From: Limnohabitans sp. Rim8
GTDB taxonomy: Bacteria; Pseudomonadota; Gammaproteobacteria; Burkholderiales; Burkholderiaceae_C
Assembly: GCF_945869175.1 (NCBI RefSeq)
Contig: NZ_CAMBNZ010000001.1
Coordinates: 1-64,000, forward strand
Reading direction: 5' to 3'
Length of the DNA: 64,000 bases
The position numbers and the translations under genes are program-made. The notes under the pieces were generated by a model. The model made no database searches and was not told where the DNA came from. It saw only the letters and a list, made by a program, of their open reading frames with translations. Every line of letters starts with the position of its first letter. Positions within the stretch are counted from its first letter, which is position 1. Positions 25,467-60,872 of this stretch are shown piece after piece.

Positions 25467-25991
25467 TCAGACGCTCCACTTTTCCAGCAATTTTTCGGGT
25501 CGCATGTTGTCATACGGCTCAAAGGGCTGGTGAATCCAGGGGTTGGTGGGCAAATCTTCCACCGAGTAATCGGGCTTGAAGCTCGACACGCCTTTGGTCC
25601 AGATCACCGCCGTACGCAACTCCGTGACAGGCTTGTAGTTGTTTTTCAATTGGTCCACCACGGCACGCAAGGTATGACCGGTATCGGCCAAATCATCCAC
25701 CAACAAGACGCGGCCAGCGATCTCGCCTTTGGGGGTGGTGATGTAGCGGGCGATGTCCAAATGACCTTGTACTGTGCCGGCTTCAGCGCGGTATGAACTG
25801 GTGGACATGATGGCCAGCGGTTTGTCAAAAATGCGCGACAAAATGTCACCTGGGCGCATGCCACCACGAGCCAGACACAGAATGTTGTCAAACTCCCATC
25901 CGGACTGGTGAATTTTGATGGCGAGTTTTTCGATCAGGTTGTGGTACTCGTCGTAGCTCACGTACAGGTGCTTGCCGTCTTCGGTCAACAT
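25467..25991 (-). CDS. Purine (Gpt/Hpt-like) phosphoribosyltransferase
   Basis: PRPP motif VLLVDDLADTGHTL. Confidence 0.87.
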   Translation of the reverse strand: MLTEDGKHLYVSYDEYHNLIEKLAIKIHQSGWEFDNILCLARGGMRPGDILSRIFDKPLAIMSTSSYRAEAGTVQGHLDIARYITTPKGEIAGRVLLVDDLADTGHTLRAVVDQLKNNYKPVTELRTAVIWTKGVSSFKPDYSVEDLPTNPWIHQPFEPYDNMRPEKLLEKWSV

Positions 25992-26036: not shown

Positions 26037-28561
<2,525 letters not shown>

Positions 28562-58278: not shown

Positions 58279-58767
58279 TCATGGTTTGGCAAATTCGGCA
58301 TCCACCCACGCTTGGGCGGTCTGGCGGTTGAGCTTGAAGGCTGCCGAGACCTTGATCTCGGCCAAGGCATCACCGCTGTCGTCCTGTGCACTCAGCATGG
58401 CGTAGGGGTTGTCCTCGTCGGGCACGATGCGCAACAACACCGTCACCCGACTGTCTTGGCCATTGACAGTGACGCTTTGGTTGAGTTGCGCATGCAGCTG
58501 CTGCTCACTGCGACGCACAAATTCACCGGCGGTTTTGACCAAGGTGATGAAGGCTGAGCCGTCCAGCGGCTTGGGGTTCTTTTTGTCTCGGCCCATGGTC
58601 CAGGGGCCTACCAAAGCGGGCTCACTCTCACCCGCTTTGTACATGGCCACGGCCCAACCGTCGTCATCGTCATTTTTGACCACCTGGGCCGTCCACTGCT
58701 CGTTTTGCCAACGGCGGGGCTCTTGGACCAGCGGCTGGCCTTGCATGTCTTGCGTGTTGTCGTTCAT
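58279..58767 (-). CDS. Conserved hypothetical protein
   Basis: 162 aa, start MNDNTQDMQGQ; no recognisable domain. Confidence 0.7.
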   Translation of the reverse strand: MNDNTQDMQGQPLVQEPRRWQNEQWTAQVVKNDDDDGWAVAMYKAGESEPALVGPWTMGRDKKNPKPLDGSAFITLVKTAGEFVRRSEQQLHAQLNQSVTVNGQDSRVTVLLRIVPDEDNPYAMLSAQDDSGDALAEIKVSAAFKLNRQTAQAWVDAEFAKP

Positions 58768-58802
58768 CGTGGTGGCCCTCAAATTCAAGCGTCGATCATG
58801 CC

Positions 58803-60872
58803 TCAAGGGCGCAGGTGCAATGCCAGCAGCAGCACCTGGCTGGCCCCTTGCTCACGCAAAAGGGCTGCCGCCAAGGTGGCGGTCCAGCGGGTGCGCACAT
58901 CGGTGCTCACCAGCAGCAGGAGTCCGGCGGGCAAAGCGGCATCGGGTGCAAGGCGAATGGCCGATTCCAGGTGCGCCACCACGGGGGTCGAAGCCGCGTC
59001 ATCCGGGGCGGGCCCACCCGTCCAAATCAACACGTCATACAAAGGCAAACGCCCCTTTTGGGCGATGTGCTTGGCCACACACCTGTTGGACGCCATGTTG
59101 GGCGCAGGCATGGGCACCACTCCCACAGGACGCATGGGCCAAGTCTTGGCCCAGCGCCCCAGCAGGGCCACTGCACCCGCCAGGATCTCTGCAGGGACAT
59201 CACCGGGCGCGGCAACACGCAAAGCCTGCAGTTCGGCCACCCACACCGGGTCGTCGGCAAAGGCCACGGCACGGCCCTCCTCAAAACCCCGAATACTGCC
59301 CTTGCGCCCCACCCCGCCAGGCCAGCGCTTGCGCGGCTCAATGTCCACCTCCATGCCGCGCAAAAAATCACGCGCCGCAAGCAGTTTGTCTGGCGAAGGC
59401 GCAAGACCCGGAAACGGCAATTGAGCCGTGCAAACTGAGCAGCGCCCGCACGGCGCGGGCGAAGGGTCATCCAGCGCGGTTTGCAAATAAGCCATCAAAC
59501 AACCTTGGCCATGTGCGTACTGGCGCATGGTGTCCGCCTCTTGCTGGCGCACCTGGGCCAGCGCCGTCCATTTGGCCGTGTCGTGCACATAGGGCACGCC
59601 CGTGGCACGCCAAGCCGAGCCGTCTTTGTCCACCACGCCCTCCACCGCCAAAATTTTGAGCAGCGCCTCCAGCCTGCCTCGGCGCACACCCGTGTCGGCT
59701 TCGATCTCGATCAGGCTGCGCTCATCACGGCCCAAGCTGGCGAGCACTTTGGCAGCCGCAGCGGCATCGGGAATGGACGCCGTGGCGAAGTAATCCCAAA
59801 TGCGCTCATCGGCATCCGACGGCAGCAACACCCCTTCCGCATGCGCCACCGCTCGCCCGGCCCGGCCCACCTGCTGGTAATACGCAACGGGCGACGCGGG
59901 CGAGCCCACATGCACGCAAAAACCCAAATCCGGCTTGTCATAGCCCATGCCCAAGGCCGAGGTGGCCACCACCGCCTTCACTTGGTTGTGGCGCAAACGC
60001 TCTTCCACCTTCAGACGGGTGTCGGCGTCGGTCTGCCCGGTGTAGGCATCGACCGCATGGCCGCAGTGGCGCAAAAAAGCCGTCAGACGCTGCGCCTCGG
60101 CCACCGTCAGCACATACACAATGCCCGAGCCGGGAAGTTGTTCCAGGGCATCGGCGATCCAGGCGTAACGCTGCAAGGGCGACAGCCCCGGCACCACCGA
60201 CAGCGTGAGCGAGGTGCGCGCCAGCGTGCCGCGAAACGTCACCGTGTTCGCGCCCAGCTGCTTGCCAATGTCGAGCGTCACCCGCTCGTTGGCCGTGGCC
60301 GTGGTGGCCAGCACACTGGCCGTGGGCGTGGACAGCAGCGCCCGTGCAAGCCGCTGGTAGTCGGGTCGGAAGTCAAAACCCCAATCGCTGATGCAATGCG
60401 CTTCATCGATCACGATCAAGCCCACCCGGGCCAGCAAAGCGCCCAGTCGCGCCGCAAAACGCGGATTGCCCAGCCGCTCGGGCGAGACCAGCAACACGTC
60501 CATGTTGTCGGCATCGAGCCGCTGAAACACATCGTCCCAATCGTCGAGGTTGGTGGAGTTGATCGTGGCTGCCTTCAGGCCCGCCCGCTCAGCCGCGCTC
60601 ACCTGGTCGCGCATGAGGGCCAGCAGGGGCGAGATCACCAGGGTGGGGCCTGCGCCCGTGCTGCGAAGCGCGTGCGTGGCAGCCCAATACACCGCCGACT
60701 TGCCCCAGCCCGTGGCCTGCACCACCAACACCCGCGATGCCGTTTGCAGCACAGCGTGCACGGCATCCACCTGGTCAGACCGAGGCAACGCGTCGGGCCC
60801 GGCCAAGCGAGCCAGGATGGTCAACAGGTGCTGCTCTGCGAATTCACGTTCCATCGGGTTCGGACTGCTCAT
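58803..60872 (-). CDS. RecQ-family ATP-dependent DNA helicase with C-terminal phosphoribosyltransferase-like domain
   Basis: Walker A QATGWGKSAVY, VIDEAHCISDWGFDFRPDY, QQVGRAGR, Cys cluster CGRCSVC; C-terminal region similar to ComF-type PRTases. Confidence 0.9.
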   Translation of the reverse strand: MSSPNPMEREFAEQHLLTILARLAGPDALPRSDQVDAVHAVLQTASRVLVVQATGWGKSAVYWAATHALRSTGAGPTLVISPLLALMRDQVSAAERAGLKAATINSTNLDDWDDVFQRLDADNMDVLLVSPERLGNPRFAARLGALLARVGLIVIDEAHCISDWGFDFRPDYQRLARALLSTPTASVLATTATANERVTLDIGKQLGANTVTFRGTLARTSLTLSVVPGLSPLQRYAWIADALEQLPGSGIVYVLTVAEAQRLTAFLRHCGHAVDAYTGQTDADTRLKVEERLRHNQVKAVVATSALGMGYDKPDLGFCVHVGSPASPVAYYQQVGRAGRAVAHAEGVLLPSDADERIWDYFATASIPDAAAAAKVLASLGRDERSLIEIEADTGVRRGRLEALLKILAVEGVVDKDGSAWRATGVPYVHDTAKWTALAQVRQQEADTMRQYAHGQGCLMAYLQTALDDPSPAPCGRCSVCTAQLPFPGLAPSPDKLLAARDFLRGMEVDIEPRKRWPGGVGRKGSIRGFEEGRAVAFADDPVWVAELQALRVAAPGDVPAEILAGAVALLGRWAKTWPMRPVGVVPMPAPNMASNRCVAKHIAQKGRLPLYDVLIWTGGPAPDDAASTPVVAHLESAIRLAPDAALPAGLLLLVSTDVRTRWTATLAAALLREQGASQVLLLALHLRP

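What the first reader, a model, noticed from the sequence alone, without database searches (positions are those of the whole stretch)
58806..59135. RecQ helicase fused to a phosphoribosyltransferase-like domain with a degenerate PRPP motif
Seen: the last ~110 aa of the RecQ protein (RPVGVVPMPAPNMASNRCVAKHIAQKGRLPLYDVL ... LLLLVSTDVRTRWTATLAAALLREQGASQVLLLAL) have the layout of a type I PRTase. Established: the PRTase signature is hhhhDDhhxTGxT, as in the intact PRTase of this window (VLLVDDLADTGHTL, 25467-25991). In RecQ the equivalent stretch (58881-58910) reads VSTDVRTRWT, so both acidic residues and the Gly appear lost while the WT is kept. Inference: a catalytically dead PRTase used as a nucleotide/PRPP sensor or DNA-end module on a RecQ helicase. 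It may belong to a poorly characterised RecQ-PRTase subfamily, with possible roles in repair or defense.
Basis: partly seen in the sequence, partly recalled or inferred. Interest (0 to 1): 0.62.

Follow-up and report, generated by a model that had tools for sequence, protein, structure and literature searches.

The report
RqlH/PsyrT helicase with dead phosphoribosyltransferase tail
The gene is a freshwater-bacterial member of a known helicase family (RqlH, also called PsyrT) whose tail looks like a nucleotide-making enzyme but has lost the acidic residues such an enzyme needs, and it stands alone without the antitoxin that accompanies its toxic E. coli relative.

Summary
ORF 58803-60872(-), 689 aa, is a RecQ-like helicase whose C-terminus folds as a type I PRTase: AlphaFold2 mean pLDDT 94.5, and the leading Foldseek hits are APRT, OPRT, ComF and PRPP synthetase. 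At the PRPP loop (58881-58910, VSTDVRTRWT) every acid of the DD..D pattern is gone. The family is known: RqlH/PsyrT (PADLOC PsyrT E=4e-182, full length). In E. coli, RqlH is genotoxic through this domain. Point mutation of the pocket removes the toxicity, and the DprA-like partner RqlI/PsyrA restrains it (PMC4670107). The window genome has no RqlI/PsyrA. In my sample, 24 of 24 partner-linked RqlH keep DD; all losses are in solo RqlH, but the partnered genes are nearly one clade, so the link is not independently tested. In the Limnohabitans-type clade only the DD+1 codons are relaxed (pN/pS about 1.1). The rest of the domain is constrained as in intact relatives (0.27). So this is a maintained pseudo-PRTase, acquired from a mainly actinobacterial lineage, not debris. 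The PRPP-sensor idea is unlikely. Most probably it is a non-toxic DNA-processing helicase with a non-catalytic binding tail. New variant of a known kind.

The parts
58803..60872 (-). rqlH/psyrT-like gene, 689 aa, RecQ-like helicase with C-terminal PRTase fold
   Evidence: ORF; PADLOC PsyrT E=4e-182 over residues 14-685; TIGR00614 RecQ family just above cut-off; full-length AF2 pLDDT 89, pTM 0.86
60273..60815 (-). RecA-like domain 1 (residues ~20-200), Walker A GWGKS at 55-59 (60696-60710) and DEAH at 156-159 (60396-60407), intact
   Evidence: Pfam DEAD 5.2e-23; motif positions; invariant in 41 relatives
59808..60272 (-). RecA-like domain 2 (residues ~201-355), with QVGRAGR at 334-340
   Evidence: Pfam Helicase_C 2e-15
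59424..59807 (-). RecQ zinc-binding/winged-helix region (residues ~356-483), Cys 458, 475, 478, 481 invariant
   Evidence: Weak RecQ_Zn_bind hit E=0.0015, below the Pfam cut-off; invariant Cys
58806..59423 (-). C-terminal region (residues 484-689) folded as one unit; PRTase core about 580-689 (58806-59135)
   Evidence: AF2 pLDDT 94.5; Foldseek to APRT, OPRT, ComF, PRS
59082..59114 (-). Former PPi loop (residues 587-597, PMPAPNMASNR): altered; family consensus PSRxRPxL / PSLRHPxL
58956..58994 (-). Former flexible loop (residues 627-639, ASTPVVAHLESAI): new conserved sequence, pN/pS 0.12
58881..58910 (-). Degenerate PRPP loop VSTDVRTRWT (residues 655-664); S656/T657 replace DD, R660 replaces the third acid

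Best explanation
The gene encodes a solo RqlH/PsyrT-family helicase in which the C-terminal type I PRTase domain has become a maintained pseudo-enzyme. The helicase core should still be an ATP-driven 3'-5' helicase (inferred from intact motifs and from M. smegmatis RqlH as reported). The tail keeps the fold and a tightly conserved, rebuilt pocket rim but cannot chelate Mg-PRPP (inferred from loss of all ligand acids). I therefore expect it to be non-toxic and to need no RqlI/PsyrA partner. The tail most likely acts as a non-catalytic nucleic-acid or protein docking module that directs the helicase to DNA intermediates, comparable to ComFC, whose ssDNA binding and cytoplasmic ssDNA handling do not need nucleotide binding. 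Identity, fold, motif loss, absence of the partner and purifying selection are shown; loss of catalysis, non-toxicity and the docking role are inferred.
For: PsyrT model E=4e-182 full length; the partner gene of the E. coli homologue is PsyrA, E=6e-174. Fold. DD lost in 41/41 Limnohabitans-type sequences. Pfam Pribosyltran score falls from 41.9 bits (E. coli plasmid RqlH) to 21.2 (Streptomyces) to none (window). No RqlI/PsyrA in the window genome or the other Limnohabitans genomes tested, only canonical DprA at E about 1e-6 to 1e-9, or no hit; RqlI-bearing controls gave 1e-30 to 1e-147 in the same search. Partner-linked RqlH: 24/24 intact DD; solo: 126 intact, 35 with one acid, 50 with none (four of the 50 are sequences truncated before the motif). 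Selection: PRTase region pN/pS 0.27 in Limnohabitans against 0.30-0.40 in intact actinobacterial groups; DD+1 codons 1.15 against 0.17; flexible loop 0.12. Experiments on the E. coli homologue: deleting residues 509-690, D663A or DIVD663EVME abolishes toxicity, and RqlI binding needs the PRTase region (PMC4670107). ComFC T165A loses nucleotide binding but not ssDNA affinity (PMC9005727).
Against: Most solo RqlH of Actinobacteria keep DD without RqlI, so absence of the partner does not by itself force loss, and intact DD need not mean toxicity everywhere. The partner/motif association rests on few independent events: the independent-pairs test had 3 pairs and no significance. No binding or toxicity data exist for this clade. 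Residues 656-657 are restricted to small side chains (A, S, T, G, C, V), so they are not fully unconstrained.
Confidence: 0.62

Rival explanations
1. The tail still binds a small molecule other than PRPP (for example a nucleotide monophosphate or a modified base) in the rebuilt pocket and acts as a sensor regulating the helicase.
For: Two of the pocket loops are under strong purifying selection, with new clade-specific conserved sequence (ASTPVVAHLES, VRTRW). ComFC binds AMP and PRPP in this pocket (PMC9005727).
Against: The residues that hold ribose-phosphate and Mg are gone. Conservation fits a protein or DNA interface equally well.
Confidence: 0.2
2. Neutral decay of a toxin domain on its way to loss.
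For: DD+1 codons have pN/pS of about 1. DD was lost several times in solo lineages (at least 5 state changes).
Against: The whole domain is constrained as in intact relatives (0.27 against 0.30-0.40) and two loops more tightly. No frameshifts or truncations in the 41 Limnohabitans-type genes used, though genes cut at contig ends were left out.
Confidence: 0.08
3. An active PsyrT-type defence toxin with a different, unrecognised antitoxin next door.
For: Member of the PsyrT family; a small ORF (58282-58770) follows the gene in most Limnohabitans.
Against: That small ORF is a common Burkholderiaceae gene (87/201 genomes) mostly found without rqlH. The residues shown to be needed for RqlH toxicity are lost. 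No PADLOC defence hit for the small ORF; other neighbours were not scanned systematically.
Confidence: 0.06
4. One reading: a dead enzyme used as a PRPP sensor.
For: B. subtilis PurR, a non-catalytic PRTase homologue, senses PRPP (as cited in PMC9005727).
Against: From general knowledge, PRPP-sensing PRTase homologues keep the PRPP motif; here all three PRPP-binding loops are altered.
Confidence: 0.04

Closest known systems
RqlH / PsyrT (PADLOC PDLC03928; M. smegmatis MSMEG_5935; ExPEC F11 RqlH)
   Same: Full-length homology (PsyrT E=4e-182), same order helicase - Zn region - PRTase fold
   Different: DD and third acid of the PRPP loop lost, PPi and flexible loops changed, no RqlI/PsyrA partner in the genome
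RqlHI / PsyrTA toxin-antitoxin or defence system
   Same: Contains the T (RqlH) component
   Different: No A (DprA-like) component; the toxicity-determining pocket residues are absent
ComFC/ComF (with the ComFA helicase)
   Same: Type I PRTase fold working with a DNA helicase/ATPase; Foldseek rank 4 (7p0h)
   Different: ComFC keeps DDIITTGTTL and binds PRPP/AMP, has its own Zn finger and is a separate protein
Canonical RecQ (also present in this genome, contig C13)
   Same: RecA-like helicase core about 34% identical over residues 17-341
   Different: Canonical RecQ has an HRDC-type C-terminus and no PRTase tail; this protein scores far below the canonical RecQ equivalog cut-offs
DpdF
   Same: PADLOC/NCBIfam DpdF models match the helicase part (E=4.6e-45 to 5e-84)
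   Different: PsyrT scores far higher and covers the whole protein; NCBIfam DpdF is far below its cut-off (154 against 550 bits); no dpd cluster noticed around the gene

Membership tests
RqlH/PsyrT | RecQ-like helicase core with Walker A, DEAH and arginine-finger motif | tested here: met
   Motifs at 55, 156, 334; Pfam DEAD and Helicase_C
RqlH/PsyrT | C-terminal PRTase fold colinear with PsyrT | tested here: met
   PsyrT model residues 14-685 of 689; AF2/Foldseek
RqlH/PsyrT | 3'-5' translocase/helicase activity | not testable with these tools
   Reported for M. smegmatis RqlH (cited in PMC4670107); not measured here
RqlHI/PsyrTA system | DprA-like partner RqlI/PsyrA adjacent or in the genome | tested here: not met
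   Only a canonical DprA on another contig; partner-bearing controls clearly detected. The window assembly is about 90% complete, but complete Limnohabitans genomes agree
RqlHI/PsyrTA system | Acidic PRPP-pocket residues required for toxicity | tested here: not met
   DD and third acid read S, T and R
Type I PRTase enzyme | hhhh[DE][DE]xx[ST]GxT PRPP motif | tested here: not met
   VSTDVRTRWT; no PF00156 hit for the window domain
Type I PRTase fold | Core sheet/helix topology with the PRPP loop between strand and helix | tested here: met
   strand 650-659, helix 663-674
Canonical RecQ equivalog | TIGR01389 / NF008279 cut-off score | tested here: not met
   258 of 640 bits and 194 of 1015 bits

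The most novel reading that the evidence does not exclude
A bacterial toxin component (PsyrT/RqlH) passed from a mainly actinobacterial lineage to freshwater betaproteobacteria and was domesticated without its antitoxin: the PRPP pocket was disarmed and then rebuilt for a different ligand or partner. This would be a natural detoxified variant, one of several independent losses of the PRPP motif in the family.
Probability: 0.35. Interest if true: 0.55.

Novelty: new variant of a known kind. Interest (0 to 1): 0.4.

Why it matters
What the PRTase domain of RqlH/PsyrT does, and why it is genotoxic, is an open question in a system listed among phage-defence systems. Natural orthologues that keep the domain but lack the catalytic acids and the antitoxin offer a direct test: if they are harmless but still needed for DNA repair, PRPP chemistry is the toxic part and docking is the useful part. 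They also warn annotators not to call every PsyrT homologue a defence toxin.

Tried and rejected
(1) The small ORF 58282-58770 as a replacement antitoxin: adjacent in most Limnohabitans, but present in 87/201 Burkholderiaceae genomes mostly without rqlH; rejected. (2) DD and TG residues sitting elsewhere in the tail: excluded by alignment and model. (3) HRDC or winged-helix tail: excluded by the fold. (4) Statistical link between partner presence and DD retention: 24/24 against mixed, but only 3 independent pairs, not significant. (5) A single clade of betaproteobacterial sequences: rejected, p-AU 5e-53; a single DD loss for the freshwater and Variovorax groups is not rejected (p 0.22). (6) Phage-borne copies: none at E below 1e-40; viral structure library gave only weak PRTase matches. 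(7) The founding M. smegmatis paper and the psyrTA discovery paper are not held in the library; they are cited through PMC4670107 and PMC9122126. (8) A first attempt to use locus ids as search centres failed.

Full report
What was checked. The ORF at 58803-60872 on the minus strand encodes 689 aa. Residues 580-689 are exactly the coordinates given, and VSTDVRTRWT lies at 58881-58910. Pfam finds DEAD and Helicase_C but no PRTase in the window protein. The same domain of a plasmid-borne E. coli homologue passes the Pfam PRTase cut-off (41.9 bits), and that of a Streptomyces homologue reaches 21.2 bits. So the domain is present but has diverged below detection by sequence models.

Fold. AlphaFold2 on residues 484-689 with 60 relatives gives mean pLDDT 94.5 and pTM 0.89. 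The leading Foldseek hits in the PDB are type I PRTases and their relatives: human APRT, OPRT, H. pylori ComF (7p0h), PRPP synthetases and the PRS-associated protein PAP39. E-values are modest (6.6e-4 at best) and TM-scores normalised to the query are about 0.4, partly because the model includes about 95 residues before the core. A profile of the family meets PRPP synthetases at the PRPP loop in the same register. The full-length model is also confident (mean pLDDT 89, pTM 0.86).

Identity. PADLOC's PsyrT model covers residues 14-685 at E=4e-182, far above DpdF and other helicases, and the neighbour of the E. coli homologue is PsyrA. PsyrT is the RqlH family: ExPEC RqlH is a RecQ-like helicase with a C-terminal PRTase domain, 41.2% identical over its length to M. 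smegmatis RqlH; RqlI, a DprA-like protein, binds the PRTase region and restrains its genotoxicity; deletion of the domain or mutation of the pocket (D663A, DIVD663EVME) removes toxicity (PMC4670107). The paper reports that 99.6% of Gram-positive strains in its set carry RqlH without RqlI. The numbering of D663 does not map unambiguously to the plasmid protein used here: it is either the second D of DD or the third acid. Both are non-acidic in the window (T657, R660).

How general is the motif loss. I assembled 235 family members of over 600 aa. All 24 with RqlI in the fetched stretch keep both Asp residues. Of those without it, 126 keep both, 35 keep one and 50 keep none (four of these 50 are sequences truncated before the motif, and the Limnohabitans group is sampled densely, so these are not frequencies). 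At least five changes between intact and lost are needed on a 200-row tree; the losing groups are the freshwater clade with the window, the Variovorax/Rubrivivax group (DARYRSGW), the Kribbella/Gordonia/Nocardioidaceae group (VVDATSSxWP), and two small actinobacterial groups. The first two could be one event (p-AU 0.22). The association of loss with absence of RqlI cannot be tested independently with these data (3 contrasts). A careful 53-row tree places the window in a fully supported clade with Limnohabitans-type sequences and a few freshwater MAG sequences, nested among actinobacterial proteins that keep DD but already carry R at the third acidic position. The two betaproteobacterial groups are not one clade (p-AU 5e-53), so betaproteobacteria probably acquired the gene at least twice. 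MAG titles in this clade are partly wrong, so the exact donor is open.

Distribution. RqlH is found in 200 of 297 Actinomycetes genomes, 30 of 60 genomes of the window's genus, 20 of 301 of its family and 15 of 399 of its phylum (the centre genome is included in these counts). In Actinobacteria it thus looks like a common resident gene. In Proteobacteria it is sporadic; two plasmid examples sit in a type I restriction operon and beside BREX pglX. The window genome also has a canonical RecQ and a canonical DprA on another contig, but no RqlI.

Selection. In the Limnohabitans-type group the helicase domains have pN/pS of 0.08-0.09. The PRTase core outside the loops has 0.27, similar to 0.30-0.40 in intact actinobacterial groups. 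Codons 656-658 are relaxed (1.15, against 0.17 in an intact group). The neighbouring VRTRWTAT (0.14) and the former flexible loop (0.12) are tightly held, with clade-specific sequence; the former PPi loop (0.30) is not tighter than the rest. This pattern is that of a retained domain with a changed pocket, not a decaying one. The DD+1 estimate rests on three codons and related sequences and should be read with that in mind; it is also not fully free, since only small residues occur at 656 and 657.

Mechanism. Shown: family membership, fold (by prediction), motif loss, absence of the known partner, purifying selection. Inferred: no PRPP chemistry, no toxicity, and a docking role. The docking proposal draws on ComFC, where a PRPP-pocket mutant loses nucleotide binding but keeps ssDNA affinity and the cytoplasmic ssDNA-handling function (PMC9005727), and on the report that the PRTase domain is dispensable for ATPase and helicase activity of M. 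smegmatis RqlH (cited in PMC4670107).

Verdict. A correct and careful observation on a known protein family. What is new, as far as the papers held here show, is that a whole freshwater clade carries a maintained pseudo-PRTase without the antitoxin, which makes the role of the domain testable.

Noticed in passing
window 58282-58770 (-): 163-aa protein without Pfam match directly downstream of rqlH in most Limnohabitans; a widespread Burkholderiaceae gene (87/201 genomes), hence an ordinary neighbour.
   Followed up: yes
L089 (E. coli plasmid NZ_OX030731, 33352-42920): rqlH-rqlI (psyrTA) inserted between hsdS and hsdR of a type I restriction operon.
   Followed up: no
L090 (Acinetobacter plasmid NZ_CP090068, 112067-119590): rqlH-dprA pair directly after BREX pglX.
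   Followed up: no
L028, L030, L034, L037 and other Kribbella/Gordonia/Nocardioidaceae loci: Independent partial loss of the PRPP motif (VVDATSSxWP): first Asp and third acid lost, second Asp kept.
   Followed up: partly
L113, L114 (same phylum, different class from the window): Proteobacterial RqlH with intact DD but no RqlI nearby or elsewhere in the genome: exceptions to the pairing.
   Followed up: partly
L009, L012: MAG titles (Bifidobacterium breve, Akkermansia muciniphila) do not fit the sequences; L012 matches a genome placed in the window's genus.
   Followed up: partly
window 25467-25991 (-): Intact PRTase (VLLVDDLADTGHTL) beside the adenylosuccinate synthetase gene 26055-27422; looks like ordinary purine salvage.
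   Followed up: no
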